A stretch of DNA of 64,000 nt from Leptolyngbya sp. SIOISBB (GTDB lineage: Bacteria > Cyanobacteriota > Cyanobacteriia > Phormidesmidales > Phormidesmidaceae). Positions 27,729-46,888 of the stretch are shown here, in pieces. The first letter of the stretch is position 1. Each line of letters opens with the position of its first letter. The position numbers and the translations under genes are program-made. Location of the stretch: NCBI GenBank assembly GCA_010671905.1, contig JAAHII010000001.1, forward strand, positions 2,542,001 through 2,606,000, written 5' to 3'. Below the pieces are notes generated by a model. The model saw nothing but the letters and a program-made list of their open reading frames with translations, did no database searches and was not told where the DNA came from.

Positions 27729-28045
27729 CGAGGAGCATCCGAGCAACTGCGAGGTCATCCGGCGACCGTTTGTTGTGCATTGATTGAATACAAGCAGAAG
27801 CATTTGATCACTGACCTGATGGCAATTGGCTAAAGTTCCTGCCGCTAGTGTTGTCGTGGTTTGGTGGCAGTAGTTCTAAAGTTCCTGCCGCTAGTGTTGT
27901 CGTGGTTTGGTGGCAGTAGTTCTAACGAGGCATCAAGTCATCCACCAAGTCCGTGATGAATCCTGCGATCGCAGCCATTAGGGTTAAGACTAGAATCGTC
28001 AGCTAGCGTGAACTCTTCGTCGAATTGAGAGCTTGACGCTCCGGC
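27729..28045. other. intergenic region with a two-copy 46-bp tandem repeat
   Basis: Between convergent genes. The repeat at 27831-27922 is the only structure. No terminator with a T-tract is evident. Confidence 0.5.
27831..27922. repeat. 46-bp tandem duplication
   Basis: TAAAGTTCCTGCCGCTAGTG begins each of two consecutive identical units (27831-27876 and 27877-27922), each ending TGGCAGTAGTTC. The perfect identity suggests a recent duplication. Confidence 0.92.
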
Positions 28046-28918
28046 TTAGATGGATGGGTTGGTGGCCGGCTTCAATAGGCGGAAGCCGATGTGGGTCGTT
28101 CCGGTGTCTAGCGCTTGGGATTCGCGGGCAGCGGGGCGATAGCGGCTGCAGTAGTTTTTGGCGCACAGGTAAGAGCCGCCTTTGATGACGTGCATAGCGC
28201 CATCCATCGGTTTCTTGGGGTCATAGCTCTCGGTTTGGGGCGGGCCGATGGGGTCTTGGCGATGGGCCATATCGTCGTGTAAGACGGTGTACCAGCTCGC
28301 AGTCAGTTCCCAGACGTTGCCGGTCATGTCGTAGAGGCCGTAGCCGTTGGGCGGAAACGACATTGCGGGAGCGGTGCTTAAGTACCCATCTTGTTTTGTG
28401 TTGAAAAAAGGGAACATGCCTTGCCAAGTATTGGCTTGCTCGGCAGCATACTGTTCTCCCCAGGTATATGTCCACCCAGCATTACCCCCGCGAGCGGCGT
28501 ATTCCCACTGAGCTTCGGTCGGCAGTTGGCGATCGGCCCAATCGGCGTAGGCGATGGCATCTTCGTAGGCGATTTGAACGACGGGATGATCCGCCTTACC
28601 CTGAATGCCGCTCTCGGGGCCAAAGGGATGCTGCCAATCAGCCCCTGGGGTCCACTGCCACCAACTGAGATAGGCAACTTGCTGGATGCCTTCTGCAGGC
28701 GGTTGAAAAACCAGCGAACCGGGGGCTCGCTCATCGTCAGCTAAGTCAGGAAACTGCTCCTGGGATAAAGGGCGTTCGGCCACTGTGATGTAGCCCGTGG
28801 CTGCCACAAATTGAGCAAACTGGGCGTTAGTAACTTCGTGGGGCTCGATGCAAAAGCTGCTGACAGTGACATCCTCAGCAATTTTCTCTTCTACAAAGTC
28901 GGGGTTGTCTGACCCCAT
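28046..28918 (-). CDS. formylglycine-generating enzyme (FGE/SUMF1) family protein, catalytic domain
   Basis: The frame from ATG 28918 gives 290 residues of FGE-sulfatase fold: SFCIEPHEVTNAQFAQFV, DHPVVQIAYEDAIAYADWA, LPTEAQWEYAARGG, GLYDMTGNVWELTASW, and GGSYLCAKNYCSRYRPAAR. The last contains the C-x4-C pair typical of aerobic copper-dependent FGE. FGE converts the active-site Cys of sulfatases to formylglycine. Three sulfatase genes lie 11-18 kb away. The translated frame lacks its leader and the family's PGGTFTMG start: that sequence is present just upstream but in other frames. Confidence 0.8.
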   Translation of the reverse strand: MGSDNPDFVEEKIAEDVTVSSFCIEPHEVTNAQFAQFVAATGYITVAERPLSQEQFPDLADDERAPGSLVFQPPAEGIQQVAYLSWWQWTPGADWQHPFGPESGIQGKADHPVVQIAYEDAIAYADWADRQLPTEAQWEYAARGGNAGWTYTWGEQYAAEQANTWQGMFPFFNTKQDGYLSTAPAMSFPPNGYGLYDMTGNVWELTASWYTVLHDDMAHRQDPIGPPQTESYDPKKPMDGAMHVIKGGSYLCAKNYCSRYRPAARESQALDTGTTHIGFRLLKPATNPSI

Positions 28919-29067
28919 GGTAAAAGTGCCCCCCCGGAATGTAGATCATGTCACTAGGGCAGGGGGTTGCTAGGAGCCGCGATCGCATTCCCGATCATCA
29001 ATAATCCGCTACTGAGGATGAGTAAGCAGCAACTCGCAATTGTGAATAGAGAACTAAGCACTTTCAT
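28919..29067 (-). pseudogene. detached 5' end and signal peptide of the FGE-like gene
   Basis: On the minus strand ATG 29067 encodes a signal peptide (MKVLSSLFTIASCCLLILSS..., ending near AIAA) and stops at TAG. A second frame then reads SDMIYIPGG, the typical FGE start. After the G7 run at 28930-28936 the sequence TFTMGSDNP continues in the main frame. With G6 and one more single-base change the whole would be one exported FGE. Two one-base indels therefore separate the leader from the enzyme. Confidence 0.65.
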
Positions 29068-29465
29068 TTTGCCAAGTATCAATATATTGAGTCAGGTATC
29101 GAGCCAGTTTAATGCGGTTCCGGTAAAGCCCATCAATACGGTAAGCATATCCCTGCCAGATCAGGCCAATATGTGACTCAAGCAGGAAGACCGGAGCAAA
29201 TTTGACTAAACATCGTTGGAGGCCAAAAGACTTTAACTTCTCGCTGAGCCGTTACTGAGATTGGGAAAGGCGGCAAGGTATTCAGCGCTAAGGACACATA
29301 TAGCGAGCCGCAGTTTGATCAGGTCGCCCTGGATTGTCAAAACCGCTTTCTAGCCCACCTTTCAATTCCGCATTCCGACCTCTGCATTCCGCATTCTGCT
29401 ATAACTTCACATCTAGATAACGTCCTAGAGAGGATTATGTGACATTCATCAAGGCTGAGGTGGCA
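29068..29465. other. intergenic region with dispersed repeat
   Basis: Nearly 400 bp between two minus-strand genes. The only notable content is the second copy of the dispersed repeat at 29306-29403. No gene seen. Confidence 0.5.
29306..29403 (+). repeat. dispersed intergenic repeat, copy 2
   Basis: Matches 10635-10732 in the same orientation, including AGCCGCAGTTTGATCAGG and TTTCAATTCCGCATTCCGAC. The middle is most diverged. The copies are 18.7 kb apart. Confidence 0.75.
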
Positions 29466-30929
29466 TTAAGTTGCGATCGCGTTTGCCTCTGCCCCTTGCT
29501 GCTGCTTAATCCAAACATTGTAAGGCAGGGCGGTGAGCGCCCCCACCACCATATAAGCAATGATGGTCGGAATGGCTTGCGGGGCGCCATTGGCAGCCAC
29601 TAAGAACAAGGCCAGACCGGCATTGCGGGCAATGGTGCCCGTCGCAATCGAAGAGCGATTGGCCAACTCGGGGCCACCCAACAGATGCCCCCAAATCAAT
29701 CCCACCAGAACGACGGGGGGAACGACCGCGAGCCCTCGCCAAGGCACTGTTGGCAGCAGCACCCAACTGAGGCCGAGTAAAAAGACCAACAACACGATGA
29801 AGAGTGTATTGGCGACGGTGGTGAGTAATTCACTAATTTTGGCAGCACTGGCTCCGCCTAGACGACGGATTAAAAGACCCAATCCCAAGGGTAAAAACTG
29901 CACCGTGAGCACTTGTTTACCAATAACCAGAAAGTCACCGCTGGCTTCAACGTCAGCAAAAATGGCTGTAAACATGAACAGCGTTAGCGGGGTGGTGACA
30001 ACAGCCAGAGCGGCTAAGGTCACCTGCAAGCTTGTGGCGATCGCAATATTGCCGCCCGCCATCGAGGCGCGCTGAGTCAATAGCGGTGCTCCGGGGGCTG
30101 ATGCCAGCACCACTAAGCCCAACCCGATCGGCAGAGCAGCAGGAGTACCTTTCAAAAATAAATAGCCAATCAGTCCTGTACTGATGGGGAACAGGACCAA
30201 GGCCGCCATAATCGCGCGACCGAGTAACCCCGGTTGGCGCCAGAGCACGGCTAAATTCGTCAGCTCTGTATTGACACCTAACGTCAGCATCAACAGGAAG
30301 ATCGCCATTGCGGCTAAGGCTTGAATCACTTGGCTATCAAGCGTAAACACATCGGCTAGGGCCACCCCGTTTAACACCAGCGGAATGAATGCAGCCAAGC
30401 CTAAAAACAAGAGGACGACTGCCACCGTGAGGCCCTGAGACCAACCTGGAGTGTACTCGTATTCCTCGGTCTCAATATTTTGCAGAATGCGCCAGTGGTT
30501 GATGATGGCCGCCACCAGGGTAAACAAGCCGAGGGACATCAGACTCAGTCCCAAGATGCGCTCTTCGGTGAGGATGTTAATGCCAGTGCTGGTTTCGGTC
30601 TTGTCCAGATATTTAAACAAGCGATCGATGCCGAAGCCAAAGCTAATCATCGACAAGGCCGTGCGAATCCAGGCCATCAGCGTACGTTCTTCGGCGGCAC
30701 GGGTACGTTCTCGAGCCAAGGCCGTGCGAATGACCGCCAGGTCCGTCCGCTCTCCCGCCAGGTCCGTCCGCTGCATGGACATGCCTGTGCGCTTTTCCGC
30801 GAGCTCGGTGCGTTGGCCCGCCAGAGCGGTGCGCTGCTCCGCCATCTCGGTACGCTGCATGGCCAGTTCATTATTGCTGGGCAGCTTGGCAGGCGGTTGA
30901 TCGGGAGAGGGTGGAGTGGAGTCAGTCAT
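29466..30929 (-). CDS. RT-heptad repeat + DUF202 + BASS transporter fusion protein
   Basis: The 487-residue protein has three parts. Residues 20-90 are ten exact heptads with Arg-Thr at 26/27 and every seventh residue after (33, 40, 47, 54, 61, 68, 75, 82, 89), in units such as AEQRTALAGQRTELAEKRT. Residues 75-170 are a DUF202/YidH domain (ERTLMAWIRTALSMISFGFG). Residues 180-475 form a BASS (bile acid:sodium symporter/arsenite-carrier) membrane domain, including GVNTELTNL, LASAPGAPLLTQRA and GTIARNAGLALFLVA. A DUF202-BASS fusion is unfamiliar to me. The heptads extend the three-heptad motif of ordinary DUF202 proteins encoded next door. Confidence 0.85.
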   Translation of the reverse strand: MTDSTPPSPDQPPAKLPSNNELAMQRTEMAEQRTALAGQRTELAEKRTGMSMQRTDLAGERTDLAVIRTALARERTRAAEERTLMAWIRTALSMISFGFGIDRLFKYLDKTETSTGINILTEERILGLSLMSLGLFTLVAAIINHWRILQNIETEEYEYTPGWSQGLTVAVVLLFLGLAAFIPLVLNGVALADVFTLDSQVIQALAAMAIFLLMLTLGVNTELTNLAVLWRQPGLLGRAIMAALVLFPISTGLIGYLFLKGTPAALPIGLGLVVLASAPGAPLLTQRASMAGGNIAIATSLQVTLAALAVVTTPLTLFMFTAIFADVEASGDFLVIGKQVLTVQFLPLGLGLLIRRLGGASAAKISELLTTVANTLFIVLLVFLLGLSWVLLPTVPWRGLAVVPPVVLVGLIWGHLLGGPELANRSSIATGTIARNAGLALFLVAANGAPQAIPTIIAYMVVGALTALPYNVWIKQQQGAEANAIAT

Positions 30930-31041: not shown

Positions 31042-31452
31042 TTAACGCAGCAGTGGACTCAACAGCACACTGAGAAAAGCTAGCCCGCCAATGAAGGCTA
31101 AAGCGTAGGCGACGATCAAAGCGGGCGATCGCCGCGATACATAGACCAAATCATTGCGTTGAATCCGTTGGAGCTGGTAACGATGATCGACCGCTGCATA
31201 GAGCATCGCAAAGGTGCCTAAAGCGACAAATGCAAGCCCCAAGAGGCGCGTCAGTCGTACCGGATTCACCGCGTCGCCCAAAGCTTGTTGAATCGCCGCG
31301 ACAATACTATCGATACCAAAGCCGAAACCAATCAGCGCCAGGGCTGTTCGGATCCACGCCATCAGAGTGCGCTCTTCGGCAGCGCGATTCCGTTCCTTCG
31401 CGAGTTCAGTACCAGGATTGGGTACTGGAGGGGTAGAATTTGCATCACTCAT
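31042..31452 (-). CDS. DUF202 (YidH) membrane protein
   Basis: The 136-residue protein has LAKERNRAAEERTLMAWIRT, then a helix ALALIGFGFGIDSI, a second helix LLGLAFVALGTFAMLYAAV and a third near the C-terminus. This is the YidH/DUF202 fold of unknown function. ATG 31452 is chosen; the longer frame adds eight unrelated residues. The gene diverges from another DUF202 gene at 31551, leaving a 98-bp spacer that must hold both promoters. Confidence 0.88.
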   Translation of the reverse strand: MSDANSTPPVPNPGTELAKERNRAAEERTLMAWIRTALALIGFGFGIDSIVAAIQQALGDAVNPVRLTRLLGLAFVALGTFAMLYAAVDHRYQLQRIQRNDLVYVSRRSPALIVAYALAFIGGLAFLSVLLSPLLR

Positions 31453-31550
31453 GGCAAAAATATTGTTGTAGAACAATCAACCATCACTGAACGAACAGCA
31501 GAGAATACACCCGTATATCTTGGATATATCCAGTAGGAGCAACCAGCATC

Positions 31551-31955
31551 GTGAGCCCTTCGCAACCCCCTAAGCTGTTTGGCACCAACAACGAGTTGGC
31601 CAAGGAACGTAACCGCGCCGCCGCCGAGCGCACGATGAATGCCTGGATTGGCCAATCTTTGACGCTGATTGGGTTTGGCGTGGCCATTGATCGGGTTTAT
31701 CAGGGGGTACACCAACAGCTGCCGGATACTGATCCATTGCTGAGAGAAGCCCTGACCCACACCATTAGCATCGCGTTTATTGCGATGGGAACTTTGCTGT
31801 TGGCGTTGGCGTTGGTACAACATCGCTTGGAAATTAAATCGATTGAGCGCGAAGACTATGTACTGCAGTCGGTGTCGATGCTGAACCGCTTTGTCGTCTC
31901 TGGTGTGATCGTGAGTGGTGTCTTGGGCTTGGTGGTCATCACCTTGTTTTTGTAA
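31551..31955 (+). CDS. DUF202 (YidH) membrane protein, divergent
   Basis: GTG 31551 opens 134 residues: ELAKERNRAAAERTMNAWIG, three hydrophobic helices (SLTLIGFGVAIDRV; SIAFIAMGTLLLALALV; VVSGVIVSGVLGLVVITLFL). It lacks the second RT (IGQS replaces IRTA). It is the only plus-strand gene between about 28 and 54 kb. Divergent partner of the DUF202 gene at 31042-31452. Confidence 0.85.
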   Translation: MSPSQPPKLFGTNNELAKERNRAAAERTMNAWIGQSLTLIGFGVAIDRVYQGVHQQLPDTDPLLREALTHTISIAFIAMGTLLLALALVQHRLEIKSIEREDYVLQSVSMLNRFVVSGVIVSGVLGLVVITLFL

Positions 31956-32024: not shown

Positions 32025-32423
32025 TTAATACACCGGCGTCAGAAATAACTGTAGAAGCGTCAATAAACCGGCAATCAGAATAATCCAGCCGGTAACCCCC
32101 CCGAGAGAACAGCGCGGTGTGAAATAATATTCTGGCTGTTGCAGACGCTGGAGTTCACCTTGATAATCGCGGGTTGCAAAGACGAGGCTGATAACGCCTA
32201 ACCCCACCATCAAAACGCTTAACAGATAGGTCCAATAGCCGAGATAGGACACGATCGGTAAATAGGCGCTAGAAATTTGACTAATCCCGACACCGATCCC
32301 AATCAGCGATACGCTGCTGCGAATAAATGACAGTAAAGAGCGATCGGCCGAGATGCGATTACGCTCACGGGCCAGCGCTGGCTGAGGATTGGGAGGATAC
32401 GGATTTTGCATGGGTTGATTCAT
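32025..32423 (-). CDS. DUF202 (YidH) membrane protein
   Basis: 132 residues: LARERNRISADRSLLSFIRS, SVSLIGIGVGISQI, a long central helix YLLSVLMVGLGVISLVF and a C-terminal helix. This is a more distant member than the other three in the window (RS rather than RT). It lies 47 bp after the MFS transporter and is probably the last gene of that operon. Confidence 0.85.
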   Translation of the reverse strand: MNQPMQNPYPPNPQPALARERNRISADRSLLSFIRSSVSLIGIGVGISQISSAYLPIVSYLGYWTYLLSVLMVGLGVISLVFATRDYQGELQRLQQPEYYFTPRCSLGGVTGWIILIAGLLTLLQLFLTPVY

Positions 32424-32470: not shown

Positions 32471-33931
32471 TTACTTTGTGACTAAAGTGTCTGGCGCAAC
32501 TGCAGACCCTTGGATGGTTTCAAGCGATTGACCGGTGGTGTCAATGCGGTAAATGAGCGTCAGCCCCGCTGCCACCATACAACACCCGGCTAACCCACAA
32601 AGCATCCAGGGCACCCCCCAAGTTCTTTGCAAAATGGGCAGCACAAAGGTGCCTAGTACGGCTCCTGCTTTGGCCACAGCGGCCGCAAAGCCTGCTCCGG
32701 TAGCCCGCATAGAAGTGGGAAACACCTCCCCCGATAGCAAAAAAGTGGTGGCATTAGGCCCGGCATTCATTAGGAGATTGAATACCAGAAAGCCGACAAT
32801 CACCAGTCCGACTTCTCCCTGACTACCAGGTGGTAACCCGCTAGAGGCGGCAAGGATGCTGAGTCCGATGGCCATGCCGATAAACCCAATGACTTGTAAG
32901 CGAATGCGACCCAGTTTTTCGATTAGCAGAATGGCACTGATAAATCCCAGAATGAGAAATAAATCGACGACGGCAGCACCTTGAGCCGAACCCATCTCCC
33001 GAGTCATAAAGTCTGTTTCGCCAGCAAAGGCCAACAGACCAATAATGGCAGGCGTGAAAATGCCGACACCATAGGTGGCAATATCTTGCAGAAACCAGGG
33101 ACCAGCCGCCAAAATCGTGCTGCGCCGATAGGCCTGGCTGAAGAGAATGCCGTAAGTTGGGCGTTCTGCTGAAACTGGCGGTTCCCGCTCGGGCGTAATG
33201 GTCAGCGGCATTTCCAGTAGTTGGGTGGCGGCGGCAGAGGCTTCGTTGTACTCCCCACGGCTGATGTAATAACGGGGACTTTCTAGACTAAAACTCAGGC
33301 GAACGATCGCCACCAACACCGCCAACACAACGCCCACAGCGAGCATCCAGCGCCACGCATATTGAATCACCATCGTATTCGTGTCGGGATACAGGGTCCG
33401 GAACAGGTAAATCACCACTAAACCCGTGACGGCCCCCAACAGCGCTCCCACCGCCTGAAACGTAAACGCCCCAATCACCATGCGTCCGCGAAACCGGGCG
33501 GGCACGTTTTCCGTAATGTAAGACACGCTAATGGGATAATCAGCCCCAATGCCGACCCCGACCAGAAAGCGAAAGGCAATCAATGAGGCAGCATTCCATG
33601 CGAGGGCCGTCCCAGCGGTCGCAATCACAAAAATCGCGACATCCACAATCAGCATGAGCTGTCGACCGACCCGGTCAGTAATTGGCCCCAAAGTCAGCGA
33701 ACCCACTAGAGATCCTGCGACAGCGGCTGTGGCGACTGCTCCGATAGCGGTGGCACTGAGCCCAAAGTCCCGCTGTAAAAAGGGGAGCGCCACCCCAATA
33801 ATGAAAAAGTCAAAGCCATCGAGAGCAATCAGACCGGCTGACAGCAGCCACAGTAGCCACATGGTGCGGGTGATCGGTGCGGCATCGAGTCGTTCTTCAA
33901 AGGATGGCGCGGATGCTGGACTTGTGATCAT
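32471..33931 (-). CDS. MFS transporter, sugar/metabolite:H+ symporter type
   Basis: 486 residues with 12 helices. Signatures are LDGFDFFIIGVALPFLQRDF (helix 1), GPITDRVGRQ (loop 2-3), FRFLVGVGIGADYPISVSYI, a loop ending in ARFRGR, SLESPRYYI and a later SGEVFPTSMRATGAGFA. This resembles the SP/PHS-like or aromatic acid:H+ group. The substrate is not readable. Start ATG 33931 overlaps the stop of the upstream UPF0114 gene by four bases (ATGA). Confidence 0.88.
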   Translation of the reverse strand: MITSPASAPSFEERLDAAPITRTMWLLWLLSAGLIALDGFDFFIIGVALPFLQRDFGLSATAIGAVATAAVAGSLVGSLTLGPITDRVGRQLMLIVDVAIFVIATAGTALAWNAASLIAFRFLVGVGIGADYPISVSYITENVPARFRGRMVIGAFTFQAVGALLGAVTGLVVIYLFRTLYPDTNTMVIQYAWRWMLAVGVVLAVLVAIVRLSFSLESPRYYISRGEYNEASAAATQLLEMPLTITPEREPPVSAERPTYGILFSQAYRRSTILAAGPWFLQDIATYGVGIFTPAIIGLLAFAGETDFMTREMGSAQGAAVVDLFLILGFISAILLIEKLGRIRLQVIGFIGMAIGLSILAASSGLPPGSQGEVGLVIVGFLVFNLLMNAGPNATTFLLSGEVFPTSMRATGAGFAAAVAKAGAVLGTFVLPILQRTWGVPWMLCGLAGCCMVAAGLTLIYRIDTTGQSLETIQGSAVAPDTLVTK

Positions 33932-34506
33932 TCTTCTGCCTCCCGAGGTGGGGCGGCCTCTTCTTCATTATCAAATTGCAGCAAGCGGGTGCTGGCCGCG
34001 ATCGCCAAAATCGATAACGGGATGACCAGATAAGTCCACTCCAAGCCTTGGAAAGATAAGCGCTCTAGCAGTCCTTTGACAAAAATGACGGTGAGCAACA
34101 CCACCAGCACTTCCAATAGTGTTTTTTTCAGGGTGCCAATGTTGCTAACCGCTAGCCAGCTTGGCAAGTTGGGATCTGGACGCCCGAGTTGAATGAACAA
34201 AGCATAGATGCCGTAAGCGAAATAGAGGAAGGCCAAACCGACGATAAAGTCATCTAGGCATTCCAACAGCTCAATCGTCGCTAACTCGGTCAGCTCCAGG
34301 CGGGCGCTCTCGATGAACGGTTCTTCAAGACCGCCGACCAGCAAAATCACCTTAAAGGTGTTGACCGTCCCAATCCAGAACATGATCAAAGCCCCCAACA
34401 GGGATGACAGAATGGCCAAGACGCTGATTAATCGCGTCAATTTGATGACGGCCAAGATACGGGGCATTGCACTGACATCTTTATTCGACGGAGCAACATC
34501 TGCCAT
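33928..34506 (-). CDS. UPF0114 (YqhA) family membrane protein
   Basis: 192 residues with four hydrophobic segments. Family cues are LTRLISVLAILSSLLGALIMF, the loop ECLDDFIVGLAFLYFAYGIY and IGTLKKTLLEVLVVLL. The acidic tail (NEEEAAPPREAEE) is extra. Function of the family is not established. It overlaps the next gene (MFS) by ATGA and follows MarC by 56 bp. Confidence 0.85.
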   Translation of the reverse strand: MADVAPSNKDVSAMPRILAVIKLTRLISVLAILSSLLGALIMFWIGTVNTFKVILLVGGLEEPFIESARLELTELATIELLECLDDFIVGLAFLYFAYGIYALFIQLGRPDPNLPSWLAVSNIGTLKKTLLEVLVVLLTVIFVKGLLERLSFQGLEWTYLVIPLSILAIAASTRLLQFDNEEEAAPPREAEE

Positions 34507-34562
34507 AACGGTTCACGAGTTCGACACGGTTGGGGGCAATGAGAAAGGGAGCGGGTGAGACG

Positions 34563-35483
34563 TTATTGGCCTCTGAGCAATAGCTGGATGACCAACGCCT
34601 GAATTTCGAGCCCGACTAAAATGAACTGGATGCCGAGGGCAAACTGCATCACGCCTAGGGTATAGCCCAAAATTTTCAGCGTGACTGGGCGAATGAATTT
34701 GAGGATCGGTTCCGCCGCTAGCATCGAGAGCAAATTCAGCACCATCACCAGCAACAGCAGCGCGATCACCGCCACGACTTCGAGTCCTAACGCCGTCGAG
34801 AGCACCATTAGCGTCAGGGCGATCGCAATGCCAAAGGGCGGCAAAATGGACGGAAAGGCTAAAGGCGTAATGGCTAAATGTAACCCGGGTGATTCAGGCG
34901 CGGTCTCTGGTGGGGGATTCGGCGTGTACTGGGTCAAGATCAGCCGGAGGGCCACTAGCGATAGCAAAATACCACCGGCAATCATCAGCGCGGGCAACTG
35001 AATCTGCCACCCTCTTAGCAGAGACTGGCCGATGACCATGACAATCATAATGACCGCTGTGGAGATCGCGGTGCTACGCAACGCTAGCTGGCGCTTGAGG
35101 GCAGTGCTGGCATGGCGAGTGACCTGCATAAACGTCGGGATGACCTTTAAGGGACCCAGCGTGACAAAGAAGATAATGAATAAATTAAATTTGCCAAAGT
35201 CCTCTTCCAGGGTGCTGGCGGCAATCTCATCGGCAATGCGTAACTTACCTGGTTGAATTGGCGTCGTTTCCACTTGAGCGATCACCCAGGCGTGATGGGA
35301 GAGCCCCATGGCCGCGAATACGTTCGGGATCATGATGCTCAGCACCAGCGCTACAGCCAGTACCCGCAAAGCTGTCAAGAGTCTGCATCGGAGCTGTGTG
35401 GGGCTTTGCCCAGCCCAAGACATACATTTGGTTGGGCGGCGGGAGCGATCGCGCTTCCCCCAGTAACGGCTACGATTTGCCAT
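34563..35483 (-). CDS. MarC-family integral membrane protein, long N-terminus
   Basis: 306 residues. MarC signatures begin near residue 98: FNLFIIFFVTLGPLKVIPTF, with IAGGILLSLVALRLIL, LAFPSILPPFGIAIALTLMV and a C-terminal GVMQFALGIQFILVGL. The family has six helices and no proven transport substrate. The first 95 residues are unusual: a basic stretch, then a helix (LLTALRVLAVALVLSIMI), which may be a membrane leader. The start lies 3 nt after the preceding small open frame's stop. Confidence 0.82.
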   Translation of the reverse strand: MANRSRYWGKRDRSRRPTKCMSWAGQSPTQLRCRLLTALRVLAVALVLSIMIPNVFAAMGLSHHAWVIAQVETTPIQPGKLRIADEIAASTLEEDFGKFNLFIIFFVTLGPLKVIPTFMQVTRHASTALKRQLALRSTAISTAVIMIVMVIGQSLLRGWQIQLPALMIAGGILLSLVALRLILTQYTPNPPPETAPESPGLHLAITPLAFPSILPPFGIAIALTLMVLSTALGLEVVAVIALLLLVMVLNLLSMLAAEPILKFIRPVTLKILGYTLGVMQFALGIQFILVGLEIQALVIQLLLRGQ

Positions 35484-35486
35484 GGG

Positions 35487-35678
35487 CTATCCTTGAGCCT
35501 CCTCAATCACCCCAACCTCCCGGACCTGGACCCGAGACTGTCTGAGCATGACTGTCCCATCCGTATTCCTGGGTTTAGCGACTGCCGAGAGAGGGGATGC
35601 CAACCCCCAACCGTCAACCATCAATGCCATCGGACTCTGATCGATACAGGAGCCCAAGAGAGACGTTAACGCGCTCAT
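35487..35678 (-). CDS. small coupled ORF between ClC and MarC genes
   Basis: ATG 35678 overlaps the ClC stop (ATGA), and the frame's stop at 35487 is 3 nt before the MarC ATG. The 63-residue product begins MSALTSLLGSCIDQSP and contains LMVDGWGLASPLSAVAK. It has no known domain. The exact junctions on both sides argue for a real gene, but the sequence alone cannot confirm it. Confidence 0.45.
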   Translation of the reverse strand: MSALTSLLGSCIDQSPMALMVDGWGLASPLSAVAKPRNTDGTVMLRQSRVQVREVGVIEEAQG

Positions 35679-36991: not shown

Positions 36992-37049
36992 GGCGCTCAA
37001 TGACCTCGTTAGTATCGTTTCGTTAAACCGCCCGCCCTCTAACGCATTG

Positions 37050-37850: not shown

Positions 37851-37978
37851 AAGACAAACCTCCTATAAGGCTGCAGCGATGAAGAGAGTTAAGAAGAGTC
37901 CAAAAAGCTCAGTCAATGGCTGCTAATCGGCGAACTGCGATGGCAGCAGGACGTGAGTCAGTTCTGCAAATGACAGCC

Positions 37979-38614: not shown

Positions 38615-38732
38615 TGATTCTCTCCAAATGTACAAGGCACAAAGTTGCTAGAAAGCGCTGCGATCGCAGCCCGGAATTCTCGTTGTCACTATCATTCAAG
38701 CTAATTTCGTCCGACCTCCGTTTTGCTGGCGG

Positions 38733-39596
38733 CTATCCGGTCTCCCCCGAGGCTTTGTGGGCGACGCGTTTGCCCATCTCTCCGGCCACTGGCATGAGAA
38801 TCACGAGCATCAGCAATGCCCCTACCAAAATCATGGTTAAAACATTGGGGTCGTCGCTAAAGTTGCCAGTTGCGACCACCATGGCCGCCGCAATATTGCG
38901 CTGCGCGGTGCCGAGCCCCATGACGGGGCGAGTCCCTGCTGTTGGCCCCAAAAAGTAGCCCAGCGCCAGCGATACCAGAATAAAAATAATGGCGACGATG
39001 ATGGCCCCGCTGCCAATCGCGGCAATCATCGTACTGAAGTTCAGCACCAGCATCAGCACAAACACGGCTAGCAGGCTCACGGTCGAAGCCTGGGCCATCT
39101 GCGGCTGCAGAGATGCCGCGATATCGGGATAGCGAGCCTTCATTACCAGACCGATCGCTAATGGGATGAGCATCAAGATGATCAGCGATCGCGCGATATC
39201 GAGCGGATTCACCGCCACCCCTGGCAATAAAAGTGGCAGTACTAAAGGCACATACACTACCGTGACAACCATCAGTAGCACCATTAGCCCAACACTGAAA
39301 GCGACATCGGCCTTAGCGGCTTGGGCCAGCTTGGGCAAGAAGGGGGCTCCGGCAGCCGTGGCCAACAAGATCAGCCCCACCCCCAAAGAAGGATCTAAGG
39401 GAATGACCGTTTTCAGCAGATAGGCGACCAGCGGCACCAGGACAAAATTGACAGTGAGCGCTCGTGCAACCAAGTTCACATTCTTAAGGGGCTGGATGAT
39501 CTGCTGAACTGTGAGGCTTAAGCCCAACGCCAACATACTGCTGATCACAAAGATCAATGTGGCGAGATTCGCTAAGACACTTATCGTTTGGGCCAT
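38733..39596 (-). CDS. BASS-family (bile acid:sodium symporter-like) transporter
   Basis: 287 residues, about nine helices. Core signatures: GLSLTVQQIIQPLKN, NFVLVPLVAYLLKTVIPL, LATAAGAPFLPKLAQAAKAD and TAQRNIAAAMVVATGNF. The family co-transports organic anions or arsenite with sodium. Distinct from the fused BASS at 29466-30929, which has an added heptad/DUF202 head. ATG 39596 begins 10 residues before the first helix. Confidence 0.87.
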   Translation of the reverse strand: MAQTISVLANLATLIFVISSMLALGLSLTVQQIIQPLKNVNLVARALTVNFVLVPLVAYLLKTVIPLDPSLGVGLILLATAAGAPFLPKLAQAAKADVAFSVGLMVLLMVVTVVYVPLVLPLLLPGVAVNPLDIARSLIILMLIPLAIGLVMKARYPDIAASLQPQMAQASTVSLLAVFVLMLVLNFSTMIAAIGSGAIIVAIIFILVSLALGYFLGPTAGTRPVMGLGTAQRNIAAAMVVATGNFSDDPNVLTMILVGALLMLVILMPVAGEMGKRVAHKASGETG

Positions 39597-39927
39597 TTGC
39601 AATCTCCTCCCAGTGTCAGAAAATACGCTAGCCCCGCCATCAACCTCCAACCCTTAGTTCAGATAGTTCAGAACAGATTGCTGGCCCGTAGGCTGTCACG
39701 GCAACTGAAAGACGGACGTCAATGTGCGGCTTCGTAAGTTTCCTTCTTTTCAACATTTGAACGTGCGATTACTCGAATCATCAAAGGCTTCTTACAGTCA
39801 GCTGCTAACTGCTATAAGAAGCCTTGATCACCAGCATCCTTGCCTACCGCCTGTAGTGCTTATTCGACGCTAAAGACGGTAGCTATTGCAGGGGTAGAAC
39901 TTCCTGAAAACTTGGCAGGAATTCACC
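39597..39927. other. intergenic region with a 14-bp hairpin
   Basis: No gene in 331 bp. A strong hairpin is annotated separately (39780-39828). Confidence 0.5.
39780..39828. repeat. inverted repeat downstream of a sulfatase gene
   Basis: ATCAAAGGCTTCTTA (39780-39794) mirrors TAAGAAGCCTTGAT (39815-39828) with one bulged A. It sits about 100 bp after the sulfatase stop, so it may act as a terminator or RNA-stability hairpin, though no T-tract follows on the minus strand. Confidence 0.6.
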
Positions 39928-41571
39928 TTAGCTGCTCGGCGACTGCTGCAGTTGCTCTAGAGCATCATCAATTGTGAAGCTGGCAGCTTTTTGACGCGGC
40001 GGATATTCTTTGAAGGTTGCCAAAAACTCACCCACAAACTTTTGCGCCGGTACTAGCAAGAAGACGTGATCCAAGTACCAATCCCAGTAGGTATTGGAAG
40101 TAATCGTGGCCTTCTCATAGGGGTCTGTTCTCAGGTTATATAACCAGGGAATGCGAGTGGCGACAAACGGCTCACCCCACAAGGCCAGCGTACCGGGCGT
40201 CCGTTGCTGGGCAAAATGCACTTTCCAGTTGTCGTACCGCATCGCCAGCAGGTCGCCATCGTCAGAGAAATAGAAATACTCATCACGAGGCGCTTCCGTG
40301 GTTTCGCCGGTCAGATAGGGCAACCAGTTATAGCCATCTAGGTGCACCTTAAAGCGCTTGCCGTTGGCTCGATAACCGGCCAGCAGCTTGTCTTTGACAT
40401 CAGGAACGCCAGCAGCAGCCAAAAAGGTCGGCAGCCAATCTAGGTGAGACATAAAGTCGTTAGAAACACTCCCTGGCTCAATATGGCCGGGCCAACGCAT
40501 CATAAATGGCACGCGGAAAGCGCCTTCCCAACCGGTATCTTTTTCCCCACGGAAAGGGGTCATCGCAGCATCAGGCCAGGAATTCATGTGAGGGCCGTTA
40601 TCGGTGCTATAGATCACAATGGTGTTATCCGCAATTCCAGCGGCATCAATGGCATCAAGCACGGTCCCCACATTTTTGTCATGGTCCATCATGACATCGT
40701 GATAAGGGGACTGCCAGCGACCCGCCTGACCGACGCTCTCCGGCTTGGGATGCGTGCGGAAGTGCATGTGGGTAAAGTTCGTCCACAGAAAGAAAGGCTC
40801 ACCCGTGGCGGCTTGCTGCTTCACATATTCGGCAGACCGTTCAGCAACATCATCGTCGATCGTTTCCATCCGCTTTTTGGTCAGCGGGCCGGTATCTTCG
40901 ATGCGACCATCGGCAAAACTATGGAGTACTCCCCGAGGACCAAAGTTTTTAGCAAAGTTAGGAAACTCTTTAGCCTTGGGATAATCGGGCAGCTCGGGCT
41001 CTTCTTCGGCGTTGAGATGGTAGAGGTTGCCATAAAACTCGTCAAAGCCGTGGTTGGTGGGCAAGAACTCATCCTTATCGCCGAGGTGATTCTTCCCAAA
41101 CTGAGCGGTGGCGTAGCCCTGTTCTTTCAACAGATCGGCAATCGTGGGATCTTCCGCCCGTAGGCCCAGATCAGCACCCGGCAGGCCCACTTTGCTGAGA
41201 CCGGTGCGGAACACACTCTGACCTGTGATAAAGGCCGAACGACCGGCAGTACAACTCTGCTCTGCGTAATAATCGGTGAAGATCATGCCTTCATCGGCGA
41301 CGCGGTCAATGTTAGGAGTTTGGAAGCCCATGAGGCCTTTGGTATAAGCACTAACGTCGCTTTGACCAATATCATCCCCCCAAATCACGACAATATTAGG
41401 CTTACCAGAGGACGCAGTAGCCGCAGCTTGGGCTTGTCCATAAGACGCGGCAATCGCGGTACTTCCTAAAGGCAGATTGCCAATAAAGAGAAAGGTTGCC
41501 GTGAGCGCGATCGCGGCAACTTGTTTCAACCGAATCCGCAGCTGTTGCGGACGATTAAAGTTATGCAACAT
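39928..41571 (-). CDS. exported arylsulfatase with CTAGR active site
   Basis: 547 residues with a signal peptide (IALTATFLFIGNLPLGSTAI). Sulfatase hallmarks: metal-binding VVIWGDDIGQSD and active-site Cys107 in EQSCTAGRSAFITGQ, followed by FGKNHLGD and TDNGPH. The C-T-A-G-R motif deviates from canonical C-x-P-x-R but is common in a branch of bacterial sulfatases. Cys must become formylglycine for activity. The next two sulfatases on the same strand have CSPTR. Predicted to cleave sulfate esters outside the cell. Confidence 0.9.
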   Translation of the reverse strand: MLHNFNRPQQLRIRLKQVAAIALTATFLFIGNLPLGSTAIAASYGQAQAAATASSGKPNIVVIWGDDIGQSDVSAYTKGLMGFQTPNIDRVADEGMIFTDYYAEQSCTAGRSAFITGQSVFRTGLSKVGLPGADLGLRAEDPTIADLLKEQGYATAQFGKNHLGDKDEFLPTNHGFDEFYGNLYHLNAEEEPELPDYPKAKEFPNFAKNFGPRGVLHSFADGRIEDTGPLTKKRMETIDDDVAERSAEYVKQQAATGEPFFLWTNFTHMHFRTHPKPESVGQAGRWQSPYHDVMMDHDKNVGTVLDAIDAAGIADNTIVIYSTDNGPHMNSWPDAAMTPFRGEKDTGWEGAFRVPFMMRWPGHIEPGSVSNDFMSHLDWLPTFLAAAGVPDVKDKLLAGYRANGKRFKVHLDGYNWLPYLTGETTEAPRDEYFYFSDDGDLLAMRYDNWKVHFAQQRTPGTLALWGEPFVATRIPWLYNLRTDPYEKATITSNTYWDWYLDHVFLLVPAQKFVGEFLATFKEYPPRQKAASFTIDDALEQLQQSPSS

Positions 41572-41904
41572 AAAAATTTCACACGTATCAAAACAGCAAA
41601 ATTGCAGCCATGGAATCTTAGCTGCCAAACCTAAAAAAAAGCAATTAAACTAGGCTTAAAAAATACTCAAATATAGAAATCAGCCTTGGTAAAAGCCTGC
41701 TTTCTTTGTCCTATCAGGGCTTGGTATATCTATTAACTAATCATAAGAATGAGATAAATCTTTTAAGGCTTGATAGTGGCAAGGCGGCATGGCTGATGAC
41801 AATTTTTTGTCCAGCATGACGCTATTGCTGAGTAAGTAACAGGATTGGGGCAAGCGATCGCATCACAACTGAATTGGATGCGATCGCTCCACTACTTTTA
41901 GAGT
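41572..41904. other. intergenic region with a HIP1 hairpin
   Basis: 333 bp, no gene. A perfect 12-bp hairpin with two HIP1 octamers lies at 41853-41888; upstream of 41700 the region is AT-rich. Confidence 0.5.
41853..41888. repeat. perfect 12-bp inverted repeat of HIP1 octamers
   Basis: AGCGATCGCATC (41853-41864) pairs with GATGCGATCGCT (41877-41888) across a 12-nt loop. It is 17 bp past the sulfatase stop at 41905. Structure suggests a terminator-like role although no T-run follows. Confidence 0.7.
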
Positions 41905-44265
41905 CTAAGTCAGGTCAATCGTGACCTTGTTCAATGCACCCGTGAAATCAAACGGGGTTGCATAGTCCTCGGTCACCGGAGTGCCGGTGTCAAAGCCCAC
42001 ATCTAAGGTCTCGTCAAGAGAAATGCGGTTAGCAATACTCTTGTCCACTCGCCCCTGACCAATTTTTTTGTTATTGGCATAAAGGGTTACTGTGGCACCC
42101 GCAAAGGGTCGAGCAGCATCGGTTTTATACACCGCCTTCAACGTGACCTTACCCGTGGGGATATTGCTGGTGGACTTCACCTCATAGCGTTCAACGCCTG
42201 CAAGATTATAGTGATATACCAGCTTGCCATCCTGAACAAACAAGCCATAACCAGAGAAACGCCCACCTTGGGTCAGTAGCATCCCTTCAGCTCCCTCATC
42301 AGGAATCACCACGTCAGCGGTGATCGTGTGGCTCTTATATTTCAGGTCTGGTGCTGAACCTTCTGGCACGCGGAAATGATCAGGATAGATAAAGGTATCG
42401 CGCCCAGCCGTGAGGCTAGGACGGTTGGACACATCCAGACGCTGTGTCTTGCGATCATCCAGAGGCAATACGTTATATCGAGCCGCCTCTGCATAGAACA
42501 GATCCTTCATTTCTTGCAGCTTTTGGGGCTTTTGATCGGCCAAATCGACTGCCTGAGTGAAGTCTTCATCAATGTGATAAAGCTCCCAGTCCATGTTCAA
42601 CAAGTCCATGGGCTCGTTTTCAGAGAGCCAGGGAATGCCGCGTAGAGCACTGGCCATCCAACCATCGCTGTAGATGCCCTGGTTGCCCAACATCTCAAAG
42701 TATTGGGTGGTATGACGGGTCGGCGCTTGCGCTGCATCAAAGGTGTAAACCAGGCTGGTCCCTTCAATGGGCTTTTGGCCGACGCCGTTCACTGCTACCG
42801 GTGCCTCAATGCCAATCGCCTCCAGAATGGTCGGGGCAATATCAATCACGTGGCTGAACTGATAGCGAGTGCCGCCCTTATCTTTGATCTGCGCTGGCCA
42901 GGCAATCGCCATGCCGTTACGGGTGCCGCCAAAGTGGGAGGCAATTTGCTTAGTCCATTGGAACGGCGTATCCATGGCCCAGGCCCAAGCCGCTGGGAAG
43001 TGGTTGTAGTTCATGGGGCCACCAAGGGTATCAATCGCCGCCAGTTTTTGCGCGGTGCTTTCAGGTAAGCCATTGAAGAAGGTCATCTCGTTGAGCAGAC
43101 CTTCTAGCCCCCCCTCGGCGCTGGAGCCGTTATCGCCAGCAATGTAAATCACCAGGGTATTGTCCAGTTCACCCAGGGCATCAATGGTGTCTACCACCCG
43201 ACCCACTTCGTAGTCGGTTTGGGCGGTAAAGCCCGCAAACACTTCCATCATTCGGGCATAAACCTTTTGCTCCTCAGAGGAGAGGGAGTCCCAAGCAGGC
43301 AGAGCGTCGGGGCGAGGGGTTAGCTTCGCATCAGCAGGAATCACGCCCAGCTTTTTCTGACGGGCAAAGGTTTGCTCCCGGTACTGGTCCCAACCCATGT
43401 CGAACTGGCCCTTAAACTTGTCGATCCAGGCCTGAGGGACCTGGTGAGGGGCATGGGTCGCACCGGTCGCGAAGTAGGCCAAGAAAGGCTTCTCGGGGGA
43501 GAGAGCCTTCACCGTCTGGATGTAGTTGATGGCATGGTCAGCCATATCGGTAGTGAAGTGATAAGACGAGCCATCAGCATTGGTTTCTGGAGGTTCCAAA
43601 CGGGTGGTGTTTTCGACAATCGCAGGGTGGAACTGGTCAGTATCGCCACCGACAAAACCATAAAAGTAGTCAAACCCTAGCCCCAGCGGCCAGTGGTCAA
43701 AGGGACCAGCAGCGCTGCTTTCCCAGTCGGGGACGTTATGGTTTTTGCCAAACCAGGCGGTGGCATAGCCATATTCCTGAAGAATCTGAGAAAAGGTGGC
43801 AGCACTCTTAGGAATCACGCCAGAGTAACCGGGCAGTCCGGTTCCGGCCTCGGTAATCACGCCGTTGCTAACGGAGTGGTGGTTGCGCCCCGTGAGTAGG
43901 GCCGCACGAGTGGGGGAACAGAGGGCAGTGGTGTGGAACTGGGTGTAGCGCAGCCCATTGTTGGCGATCCGGTCCATCGTGGGAGTAGGAATGCTGCCGC
44001 CAAAGGTGCCGAACTGGCCATAGCCAACATCATCCACTAGCACTAACAGGATGTTGGGGGCATCTTTGATGCCGTAGGTGGAGGGCAGTTTCAGTTCTGA
44101 TTTGACCTCCTCTGAGGTCTTATAGGTGAGACCGATTTTGCCAGTAAACGGCTTCTCAGGATGGGGCAGGATCTCTTGGGCGAGGGCCGGAGAAACTGCT
44201 GTTTCTAGGAAAAGTGTGAGGGCAATTGTCAGACTTGCTGCCACCCTCCAGATTCGATTTAGCAT
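41905..44265 (-). CDS. exported arylsulfatase (CSPTR)
   Basis: 786 residues. Signal peptide ends SPALAQ (residue 30). Sulfatase core: LLVLVDDVGYGQFGTFGG (metal Asp78/79), active-site Cys116 in HTTALCSPTRAALLTGR, HNHSV-like NHHSVSNG, GDNGSSAEGG. After residue about 600 there is a beta-rich C-terminal domain (VVIPDEGAEGMLLTQGGRFS, LYANNKKIGQGRV). The Cys requires FGE maturation. Closely related to the next gene upstream. Likely sulfate release from extracellular polymers or aryl esters. Confidence 0.93.
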   Translation of the reverse strand: MLNRIWRVAASLTIALTLFLETAVSPALAQEILPHPEKPFTGKIGLTYKTSEEVKSELKLPSTYGIKDAPNILLVLVDDVGYGQFGTFGGSIPTPTMDRIANNGLRYTQFHTTALCSPTRAALLTGRNHHSVSNGVITEAGTGLPGYSGVIPKSAATFSQILQEYGYATAWFGKNHNVPDWESSAAGPFDHWPLGLGFDYFYGFVGGDTDQFHPAIVENTTRLEPPETNADGSSYHFTTDMADHAINYIQTVKALSPEKPFLAYFATGATHAPHQVPQAWIDKFKGQFDMGWDQYREQTFARQKKLGVIPADAKLTPRPDALPAWDSLSSEEQKVYARMMEVFAGFTAQTDYEVGRVVDTIDALGELDNTLVIYIAGDNGSSAEGGLEGLLNEMTFFNGLPESTAQKLAAIDTLGGPMNYNHFPAAWAWAMDTPFQWTKQIASHFGGTRNGMAIAWPAQIKDKGGTRYQFSHVIDIAPTILEAIGIEAPVAVNGVGQKPIEGTSLVYTFDAAQAPTRHTTQYFEMLGNQGIYSDGWMASALRGIPWLSENEPMDLLNMDWELYHIDEDFTQAVDLADQKPQKLQEMKDLFYAEAARYNVLPLDDRKTQRLDVSNRPSLTAGRDTFIYPDHFRVPEGSAPDLKYKSHTITADVVIPDEGAEGMLLTQGGRFSGYGLFVQDGKLVYHYNLAGVERYEVKSTSNIPTGKVTLKAVYKTDAARPFAGATVTLYANNKKIGQGRVDKSIANRISLDETLDVGFDTGTPVTEDYATPFDFTGALNKVTIDLT

Positions 44266-44343
44266 ACTTGGCTTAGATATTTGCAAAAGAGCAATGTCGA
44301 ATCCAGGCGGAGAAAACACGGTTCTCTCCGCCTTTGCCTAAAC

Positions 44344-46698
44344 TTATTTGATGTCGAGCACGACCTTTTCAACCGTACCCGTGAACTTAAAAGGCGGTTG
44401 ATAGGCCGTACTTACCGGAGCCTGTAGGTCTTTGCCGAAGTCGAGGGACTCCAGCCCAAAGCGACCCGCCACGGTTTTAGGAATGCTGCCCTGACCGACC
44501 TTGCGGTTATTGACATACAGGGTGCCGGTACCCCCTTTACCAGAGCCACCACCGTCGTATTTGAAGTCAAAGCGCACGTTGACGTTGCCTGTGGGTAGTG
44601 GCGTAGATGCAGTGATGGAGGTACGTTCCAGATCAAACCAGTTATAGTCATAGGCCAGCTTGTTGTCCTTGACGTAAAGGGTAAAGCCACCCGTTAAGCC
44701 GCCCTCTGACAAAATGACGCCTTCGGCCCCTTCTTTAGGCAACATCAGATCAGCCGTTATAGTGTGAGAGACATTTTTGGTTGTGGGGGCGCTACCTTCA
44801 GGAATAGACGGCATGTCGCCGGCAAACTCGATGTGTTTGCGACCGGTGTAGAAGCCAGGCCTTAGATTCACATCTGAACGCTCGATAAAGCGATCGTCCA
44901 AGGGGAAGACGTTGTATTTTTTGCCTTCCTGAATAAAGGCTTCCTGTAACGTTTTAAGCGTTTCAGGTTGCTCCACCGACAGGTCTTGGGCTTGGGTAAA
45001 GTCCTGAGTGAGGTCAAACAGTTCCCATTTGTCCTGATCAAAGGGGACAGTGCCTGCATTAATCCAGGGCATGCGGTTATGAAAGGCCGAGGCCATCATG
45101 CCGTCTTGGTAGATGGCGCGGTGACCAAACATCTCAAAGTACTGCGTTTCATGTCGGCCAGGCGCTGATTCGGCCCCGCGATCGAAGGTATAAACCAGGC
45201 TAGTGCCTTCCATCGGTTTCTGTTCGAAGCCATTGTAGATTTCGGGTTCAGGAATACCCGTAGCTTCCAGAATGGTGGGAGCGATATCGATCGCATGGCT
45301 AAACTGAGGCCGCAATCCCCCTTTTTCTTTGATCTTTGCTGGCCAGGAAATGACCATGCCATTGCGGGTACCGCCAAAGTGAGAGGCGACTTGCTTGGTC
45401 CAACGGAAGGGACTATCCATAGCCCAAGCCCAACTCACTGCATAGTGGGGAGAGGTTTCGGGACTGCCCCACTTGTCGTAGCAGCGGCGATTATCCTCCA
45501 TCGTGAGTTGGAAGCCATTGAGATTCAAAATCTCGTTACAGGACCCAATCAAGCTGCCTTCTGCACTGGAGCCGTTGTCGCCATTGATATAGATGACCAT
45601 AGTGTTATCGAGTTCACCAAGGTCGTCAATGGCGTCTACGACCCGACCAATTTCGTAGTCGGTGTAGTCCAGGAATCCCGCATAGGTTTCCATTTGCCGC
45701 GCCAGAATCTTTTGATCTTCAGGACTGAAACTGTCCCAGGCGGGCATCTGTTCTGGACGGGGCGTTAACTGAGCGTTGGCAGGAATTACCCCCAGCTTTT
45801 TCTGTCGCTCATAGGTTTCTTCCCGGAGTTTGTCCCAACCCTGGTCAAACTGGCCTTTGTACTTGGCTACATATTCTGCCGGGGGTTGGTGAGGTGCATG
45901 CACGGCTCCCGGTGCCAGGTAAGCAAAGAAGGGGCGATCCGGTGCGGTGGTTTGCTCTTGCTTAATCCAGGCAATGGTTTGATCGGCCAGATCATGGGTG
46001 AGGTTGTAGCCGTCTTCCGGTAGGGGCAACTCTTCCACGAGGTTCTGGTTTTCATAAATGGTGGGATACCATTGGTCGGTTTCACCGCCGATAAAGCCAT
46101 AGAAATAGTCAAAGCCCAGACCATTGGGCCAGCGTTCGAAGGGGCCAACGCTGGTGGTCTGGTTATCGGGCACATTGTGGTTTTTGCCAAACCAGGCGGT
46201 GCTATAGCCGTTGCGCTGCAAGATTTGCCCGATGGTCGCGGTGCTCTGAGGAATCAGCCCGGTATAGCCAGGGTAAGCGGTCGCCAATTCTTGAATGGTG
46301 CCGGAGCCAACTGAGTGATGGTTGCGCCCCGTCAGTAAGGCTGCACGAGTAGGGGAGCACAGCGCCGTAGTGTGAAAAGTGTTGTACCGCAGACCATTGT
46401 CAGCCAAGCGACCAAAGGTCGGCGTTGGGATGGGGCCACCAAAGGTACTAGCAGAGCCGAATCCAGCATCATCAATCAGCACCAGGAAAATATTGGGTGC
46501 ATCCGCTGGGGCTGCAGTGGCCTTAAACAAATTAGTATCGGCTTCGGACTCTTGATAGGTAATGCCGATTTTGCCATTGAATTCGGGCTCGGGTTGGGGC
46601 AACTTTTCTTGGGCCAGGGCTGGGGGTACAGCAGTCTGGAAGACCAGAGCCGCGATCACCACCCAGAACAAGGTGAAATTCCAAATGCGAGAGAGCAT
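44344..46698 (-). CDS. exported arylsulfatase (CSPTR), tandem paralogue
   Basis: 784 residues with the same architecture as its neighbour: signal to PPALAQ, FLVLIDDAGFGSASTFGG, Cys114 in HTTALCSPTRAALLTGR, INGDNGSSAEG and a matching C-terminal domain (LYVNNRKVGQGSIPKTVAGR). The two are clearly duplicates diverged in places. Stop at 44344 is about 80 bp ahead of the next gene's ATG, suggesting co-transcription. Confidence 0.93.
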   Translation of the reverse strand: MLSRIWNFTLFWVVIAALVFQTAVPPALAQEKLPQPEPEFNGKIGITYQESEADTNLFKATAAPADAPNIFLVLIDDAGFGSASTFGGPIPTPTFGRLADNGLRYNTFHTTALCSPTRAALLTGRNHHSVGSGTIQELATAYPGYTGLIPQSTATIGQILQRNGYSTAWFGKNHNVPDNQTTSVGPFERWPNGLGFDYFYGFIGGETDQWYPTIYENQNLVEELPLPEDGYNLTHDLADQTIAWIKQEQTTAPDRPFFAYLAPGAVHAPHQPPAEYVAKYKGQFDQGWDKLREETYERQKKLGVIPANAQLTPRPEQMPAWDSFSPEDQKILARQMETYAGFLDYTDYEIGRVVDAIDDLGELDNTMVIYINGDNGSSAEGSLIGSCNEILNLNGFQLTMEDNRRCYDKWGSPETSPHYAVSWAWAMDSPFRWTKQVASHFGGTRNGMVISWPAKIKEKGGLRPQFSHAIDIAPTILEATGIPEPEIYNGFEQKPMEGTSLVYTFDRGAESAPGRHETQYFEMFGHRAIYQDGMMASAFHNRMPWINAGTVPFDQDKWELFDLTQDFTQAQDLSVEQPETLKTLQEAFIQEGKKYNVFPLDDRFIERSDVNLRPGFYTGRKHIEFAGDMPSIPEGSAPTTKNVSHTITADLMLPKEGAEGVILSEGGLTGGFTLYVKDNKLAYDYNWFDLERTSITASTPLPTGNVNVRFDFKYDGGGSGKGGTGTLYVNNRKVGQGSIPKTVAGRFGLESLDFGKDLQAPVSTAYQPPFKFTGTVEKVVLDIK

Positions 46699-46888
46699 CA
46701 CAAACCTCATTAACACAGCAAACAAGGCGTCGCCAAACGCTATTGACCAATGGCCGTAGGCAAGTTGAAGAAATATTTAGTGGAAGAGCGATCGCGCCAC
46801 TTAAAAACTCACGATTATCTTTTTAGGTAAAGACGAGGTAAATATTTACAAGTCTTTAACTTTGGTTGTAAGGCTCCCTGGCGGGCAG

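What the first reader, a model, noticed from the sequence alone, without database searches (positions are those of the whole stretch)
30650..30862. Ten perfect Arg-Thr heptads fused to DUF202 and a BASS transporter
Arg-Thr recurs at exactly seven-residue spacing ten times (residues 26 to 89), leading without a break into the DUF202 motif ERTLMAWIRT and then a BASS membrane transporter. Ordinary DUF202 proteins next door have only two or three such heptads. The seven-residue register would place Arg-Thr on one face of a long helix. The domain combination and the heptad expansion are, to my knowledge, not described. It could gate or scaffold the transporter.
Basis: partly seen in the sequence, partly recalled or inferred. 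Interest (0 to 1): 0.85.

Follow-up and report, generated by a model that had tools for sequence, protein, structure and literature searches.

The report
Arginine-ladder helix fused to anion transporter
A cyanobacterial membrane protein joins a DUF202 domain, whose first helix carries ten Arg-Thr pairs exactly seven residues apart, to a bile-acid-type transporter inside a sulfatase gene cluster; the join and the spacing are real, conserved and under selection, and the arginines fall in the register of the pore-lining residues of yeast's polyphosphate channel.

Summary
Window 29466-30929(-) encodes 487 residues: ten Arg-Thr pairs at seven-residue spacing (26-89), running into DUF202, then a BASS/SBF transporter. 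The last two pairs are the DUF202 core itself. It is not an assembly join: about ten other cyanobacteria of the same family carry the fusion, plus one outside it, with 8-12 heptads (five positions in the outsider). In other cyanobacteria, and in a Zixibacteria MAG, DUF202 and BASS are separate neighbouring genes, usually beside sulfatase genes. The fusion is therefore a derived state of an old DUF202-BASS-sulfatase module; E. coli yidG/yidH-yidJ-yidK has a similar layout. Arg and Thr are under purifying selection. Long Arg-Thr heptads recur in DUF202 proteins without BASS, with 14-36 in Desulfobacterota. AlphaFold makes heptads plus TM1 one helix (19-111). The core Arg aligns with Vtc1 R31; R31 and K24, seven residues apart, line the VTC channel. 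Best mechanism: a cytosolic, arginine-faced extension of a DUF202 oligomer feeding or gating an anion transporter. Oligomer and cargo are inferred, not shown. This BASS subfamily lacks canonical Na+-site residues and has arginine there.

The parts
29466..30929 (-). DUF202-BASS fusion gene, 487 aa
   Evidence: Open frame; Pfam DUF202 and SBF both over gathering score; full-length relatives at 66-81% identity
30660..30854 (-). Arg-Thr heptad ladder, residues 26-90, ten RT; the last two belong to the DUF202 core
   Evidence: Sequence and codon analysis; imperfect 21-bp periodicity, 72-77% matches
30486..30707 (-). DUF202 domain, residues 75-148 by Pfam; predicted helices 19-111, 120-152, 165-194
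29469..30344 (-). BASS (SBF) transporter part, residues ~196-487, without a first TM helix of its own
   Evidence: Na+-site positions replaced
31042..31476 (-). DUF202 paralogue a
   Evidence: Pfam E 3.7e-17; same position in the family's fusion loci
31551..31955 (+). DUF202 paralogue b, opposite strand
   Evidence: Pfam E 8.4e-13; conserved
32025..32423 (-). DUF202 paralogue c
   Evidence: Pfam E 3.1e-8; conserved
28046..28918 (-). Formylglycine-generating (sulfatase-modifying) enzyme; its 5' part is out of frame in this sequence
   Evidence: Pfam FGE-sulfatase E 1.9e-69; frame break; intact in relatives
32471..33931 (-). MFS transporter, conserved neighbour
33928..34506 (-). UPF0114 membrane protein, conserved neighbour
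38733..39650 (-). Second, free-standing BASS transporter, distant from the fused one
39928..41628 (-). Sulfatase with CTAGR active-site motif and a signal-peptide-like N-terminus
   Evidence: near the fusion in relatives
41905..44319 (-). Sulfatase, CSPTR motif
44344..46725 (-). Sulfatase, CSPTR motif

Best explanation
This is the membrane transport part of a cyanobacterial sulfate-ester module. Exported, FGE-activated sulfatases cut sulfate esters outside the inner membrane, and a BASS-fold carrier moves an anion (sulfate or the desulfated acid) across it. DUF202 is the carrier's regular partner, here fused to it. The DUF202 part most likely oligomerises with the three DUF202 paralogues of the locus, as Vtc1 does with the DUF202-type membrane domains of Vtc3 and Vtc4. 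TM1 lines a central path, and the Arg-Thr heptads prolong TM1 about 80-95 A into the cytosol, repeating the register in which VTC places its pore-lining K24 and R31. The heptad (R-T-[ED]-[LM]-A-x-x) puts Arg between the Leu/Met and Ala positions, at the helix-helix face. A bundle of such helices would be a basic, anion-binding vestibule or gate. Shown: fusion, conservation, selection on R and T, gene context. Predicted: the continuous helix and the alignment register. Inferred: oligomer, arginine-lined interior, cargo, gating.
For: Fusions. Separate DUF202 and BASS genes side by side, some with 4-bp overlaps (L109, L110) or gaps of 15-49 bp (L103, L115, L117-L120). Sister clade of unfused BASS. 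Zixibacteria trio of sulfatase, seven-heptad DUF202 and BASS. E. coli yidG/yidH with sulfatase yidJ and SSF symporter yidK. Selection: R 26 synonymous/0 replacement and T 24/0 over 36 unit pairs. One helix 19-111. Core Arg aligned to Vtc1 R31. VTC TM1 residues K24/R31 and K622/R629 line the channel of a 3:1:1 pentamer: PMC9911596. Arg at a Na+-site position of this BASS subfamily.
Against: The VTC link is weak by sequence (E 0.008-0.03), and by fold the VTC chains rank among generic helical bundles. No multimer prediction could be run. Yeast Vtc1 has only one extra basic step. Mutating Vtc1 K24/R31 to alanine raised polyphosphate synthesis (PMC9911596). Arginine in a buried helix face is costly without bound anions. 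The giant-ladder DUF202 proteins sit beside histidine kinases, not transporters. Cargo and direction are unknown.
Confidence: 0.4

Rival explanations
1. The ladder is only a coiled-coil stalk. It holds DUF202 subunits (and thus several BASS carriers) together in a fixed number and has no part in moving or sensing the cargo. The arginines make inter-helix salt bridges with Glu at neighbouring positions.
For: Heptad with Leu/Met at position 4, Ala at 5 and Glu common at 6 and 7; one long helix; number varies 8-12 among close relatives; only five positions in the G341 fusion, so exact length does not seem to matter.
Against: Arg and Thr, not the hydrophobic position, are the most conserved (83/83 and 81/83 units); the same R-T pair is kept in unrelated ladders of up to 36 units.
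Confidence: 0.3
2. The ladder is a cytosolic sensor or regulatory arm. It binds a polyanion, acidic lipid or partner protein and adjusts the transporter's activity.
For: Long ladders (21-34 units) lie directly beside histidine kinase and response-regulator genes in Desulfobacterota; cytosolic placement is expected from the positive-inside rule.
Against: None of the cyanobacterial loci was seen to hold such a pair, though they were screened only with the window's own proteins; no ligand is known.
Confidence: 0.2
3. The repeat is neutral slippage in an N-terminal tail with no function.
For: Imperfect 21-bp and 42-bp DNA repeats; unit number varies in steps of one heptad.
Against: Repeat units differ synonymously at R and T but never in the residue, while other positions diverge freely; recurrence in other phyla.
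Confidence: 0.05
4. The fusion is an assembly or annotation artefact.
For: None found.
Against: Same fusion at 66-81% identity in independent genomes with the same gene order.
Confidence: 0.01

Closest known systems
DUF202 / YidH family (Pfam PF02656), e.g. E. coli YidH and YidG
   Same: ERT core running into TM1, tandem paralogues, sulfatase and transporter genes beside them (yidJ, yidK)
   Different: YidH is 115 aa, so has no room for added heptads, and is not fused; its transporter neighbour is of the SSF family, not BASS
VTC complex membrane subunits (Vtc1, and the membrane parts of Vtc3 and Vtc4)
   Same: DUF202-type three-helix domain; basic residues seven apart before and at the ERT motif; several copies, some fused to other domains
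   Different: VTC carries SPX and polyphosphate-polymerase domains and moves polyphosphate; neither domain is present here, and the sequence similarity is weak (E ~0.01)
BASS / SBF transporters (ASBT_NM, PDB 3zuy; PF01758)
   Same: Family by Pfam and phmmer; crossover motifs in TM4 and TM9 align
   Different: TIGR00841 score far below its cut-off; Glu and Gln of the TM9 Na+ site replaced by Gly and Arg; the first TM helix is absent, with DUF202 helix 3 in its place in the chain

Membership tests
DUF202 (PF02656) | Pfam gathering score | tested here: met
   58.9 bits against 23.4
DUF202 (PF02656) | ERT-x-x-A-W core running into TM1, three membrane helices | tested here: met
   Residues 81-90; predicted helices 19-111, 120-152, 165-194
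BASS / SBF (PF01758) | Pfam gathering score | tested here: met
   43.7 bits against 24.3
BASS TIGR00841 subfamily | NCBIfam cut-off | tested here: not met
   43.6 bits against 326.3
Na+-coupled BASS as ASBT_NM | Na+-site residues E260 and Q264 of TM9 (numbers from memory) | tested here: not met
   Alignment to 3zuy puts Arg435 at the Gln and, counted back from it, Gly431 at the Glu; the Arg before Asn recurs in nearly all compared members
VTC polyphosphate polymerase | SPX and TTM polymerase domains | tested here: not met
   Pfam finds only DUF202 and SBF above cut-off
VTC-like membrane channel | DUF202-type membrane domain with basic residues at heptad spacing in TM1 | tested here: inconclusive
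   E 0.008-0.03, core Arg aligned to R31; fold match Z 9.4, rmsd 2.8 over 103 residues, not above unrelated bundles
VTC-like membrane channel | Pentamer with TM1 lining the pore | not testable with these tools
   No multimer prediction available
DUF202-BASS-sulfatase module | DUF202, BASS and sulfatase genes together | tested here: met
   Window and relatives, Zixibacteria

The most novel reading that the evidence does not exclude
DUF202 proteins are a general bacterial class of VTC-like oligomeric anion channels or carrier partners. The Arg-Thr ladder is a modular, length-variable arginine-ring conduit (8-36 rings) projecting into the cytosol. Here it is coupled in one chain to an elevator-type anion carrier that serves periplasmic sulfatases.
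Probability: 0.25. Interest if true: 0.85.

Novelty: new variant of a known kind. Interest (0 to 1): 0.6.

Why it matters
DUF202 is a widespread domain without an assigned bacterial function. Fusion to BASS, repeated neighbourhood with BASS and sulfatases in two phyla, and E. coli yidGH-yidJ-yidK give it a concrete hypothesis: partner of an anion carrier in sulfate-ester use. The heptad register links it to VTC, a DUF202-type channel with solved structures, so a known pore can guide the experiments. The ladder offers a natural length series (5 to 36 units) for testing what arginine-faced helices do.

Tried and rejected
Assembly join: rejected. Slippage without selection: rejected. DNA-level pattern of five RT heptads over a class: swamped by 7- and 21-bp tandem repeats, control as high as signal, not used. 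The search for related loci in genome contigs with the single protein: nothing. Pattern anchored on the DUF202 core over 84,980 species: 84 stretches; after translation 31 in-frame, many of them low-complexity, the DUF202 ones kept. AlphaFold of the whole chain: BASS part unreliable (pLDDT mostly under 55, 12 sequences), so no claim is made on domain packing. Fold searches do not separate VTC from other helical bundles. Search for the Zixibacteria DUF202 in cyanobacteria at E 1e-20: empty and uninformative. YidH as a D-alanine exporter: came up in a growth screen but did not lower intracellular D-Ala (PMC10299036), so not used. A paper on sulfur starvation in Synechocystis gave no link.

Full report
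Observation. The minus-strand frame 29466-30929 encodes 487 residues. Arg-Thr occurs at 26, 33... 89, ten times in register. Shuffles of the same residues reach 4 at most. Pfam finds DUF202 at 75-148 and SBF at 208-387. The last two Arg-Thr pairs are the DUF202 core ERTLMAWIRT; the added part is eight heptads.

The fusion is real. A whole-protein search found it at 81% identity in two species of the same genus and at 66% in another genus. A profile from these found more in the same family (G314, G261, G327, G339, G275, G368, and the shortened G319) and one in another family (G341). Gene order is shared by the family's loci: sulfatase, usually UPF0114 and MFS, DUF202c, DUF202b on the other strand, DUF202a, fusion, FGE. 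All four DUF202 genes of the window's genome lie here.

Origin. In other cyanobacteria the nearest BASS stands alone. In the unfused clade nearest to the fusion BASS (the family's fusions themselves are one clade at 100/100), 11 of 12 have a DUF202 gene in the fetched region, nine of them within 1 kb, two overlapping by 4 bp. In one family of small genomes DUF202 precedes BASS by 45-49 bp, the order seen in the fusion; these loci were partly picked because both genes matched the query, so that count is biased. Most of the loci also hold sulfatases, several an FGE. A Zixibacteria MAG has a sulfatase, a DUF202 with seven Arg-Thr, and a BASS (37% identical to the fused one) close together. E. coli K-12 has yidG and yidH (both DUF202), sulfatase yidJ and SSF symporter yidK together. 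The window's sulfatases carry the formylglycine-type motifs CTAGR, CSPTR and CSPTR. I conclude that DUF202 and BASS form an old sulfatase-linked pair and that fusion came later. Whether the G341 fusion is a separate event is not settled: the tree needs one or two changes.

Heptads. Counts in the fusions are 8, 9, 9, 9, 10, 10 and 12 in one genus, 10 positions in the window's genus (one Arg-Asn in two species), and five positions in G341, of which three are Arg-Thr. An unfused DUF202 of Synechococcaceae SM2_3_1 has eight, so the ladder does not need the fusion. In the window, comparison of nine units gives 26 synonymous and no replacement differences at Arg, 24 and 0 at Thr, against mostly replacements at the variable positions. 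Consensus: R-T-[ED]-[LM]-A-x-x. A scan of 84,980 species found ladders in other DUF202 proteins (Niastella, Eremiobacterota, WS1, Zixibacteria), and in Desulfobacterota ladders of up to 34 units, 36 in a further search, most over Pfam's DUF202 cut-off, one just under.

Structure and register. AlphaFold gives one helix 19-111 (pLDDT about 70-90 along most of it), then helices 120-152 and 165-194. On a 3.5-residue wheel (arithmetic, not a measurement) Arg lies between the Leu/Met and Ala positions, that is, in the helix-helix face. The nearest solved relatives are yeast Vtc1 chains (E 0.008-0.03). The core Arg aligns with Vtc1 R31. In the VTC structure five TM1 helices form the channel, and K24 and R31 of Vtc1 and K622 and R629 of Vtc4, each pair seven apart, line it; the narrowest ring contains R31 (PMC9911596). 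The ladder thus repeats the VTC register outward. The fold search is compatible but not decisive.

Transporter part. The match to ten-helix ASBT_NM begins at its residue 45, so the first BASS helix is missing and DUF202 helix 3 comes where it would be. This agrees with an N-in DUF202 whose third helix ends outside (inference). At the aligned TM9 site, G431 and R435 replace the Glu and Gln of ASBT_NM, and TM4 carries a conserved basic residue. In ASBT_NM the substrate anion binds at the N-termini of TM4b and TM9b, and Na+ stabilises it (PMC10645422). Arginine there suggests anion binding without the usual Na+ sites; this is inference.

Mechanism and confidence. Module membership and fusion: about 0.9. 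Ladder as continuous cytosolic extension of TM1: about 0.8. Oligomeric arginine-lined anion path feeding or gating BASS: about 0.3-0.4. A pure stalk and a sensory arm are the main rivals.

Novelty. No paper in the searched library was found to describe a DUF202-BASS fusion or the Arg-Thr ladder; subscription journals are not covered. I class it as a new variant of a known kind.

Noticed in passing
L226 (same gene as L240), L192, L172, L178, L187, L169: DUF202-type proteins of Desulfobacterota with 36, 34, 28, 24, 21 and 14 Arg-Thr heptads before a short membrane domain; in L172, L178, L187 and L192 the gene lies directly beside what is, or by its sequence looks like, a histidine kinase and a response regulator.
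   Followed up: partly
L197:95-6021: Zixibacteria MAG with sulfatase, a seven-heptad DUF202 and BASS close together, the same trio as in cyanobacteria.
   Followed up: partly
28840-29070: The FGE gene is out of frame near its 5' end: a signal-peptide-like start and the body lie in different frames, with changes near C- and G-runs. Relatives have it intact. Either a sequencing error or a broken gene.
   Followed up: partly
L100:5522-6688: In genome G319 the fusion protein has lost most of DUF202 in frame (heptads joined to the last DUF202 helix and BASS); a real deletion or an assembly collapse.
   Followed up: no
L121:9317-10792 and L122:16726-18210: Related BASS proteins with a different N-terminal extension of about 190 residues, another BASS fusion.
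   Followed up: no
24168-24369: 45-bp tandem repeats coding NFDELRRENLDKDAV-type units in a small exported-looking protein.
   Followed up: no
27830-27925: Perfect 46-bp tandem repeat, 2.1 copies, outside the listed genes.
   Followed up: no
32471-38635: The cluster also holds MFS, UPF0114, MarC, ClC-type channel and LURP-one-related genes: an unusual density of membrane transport genes beside the sulfatases.
   Followed up: partly
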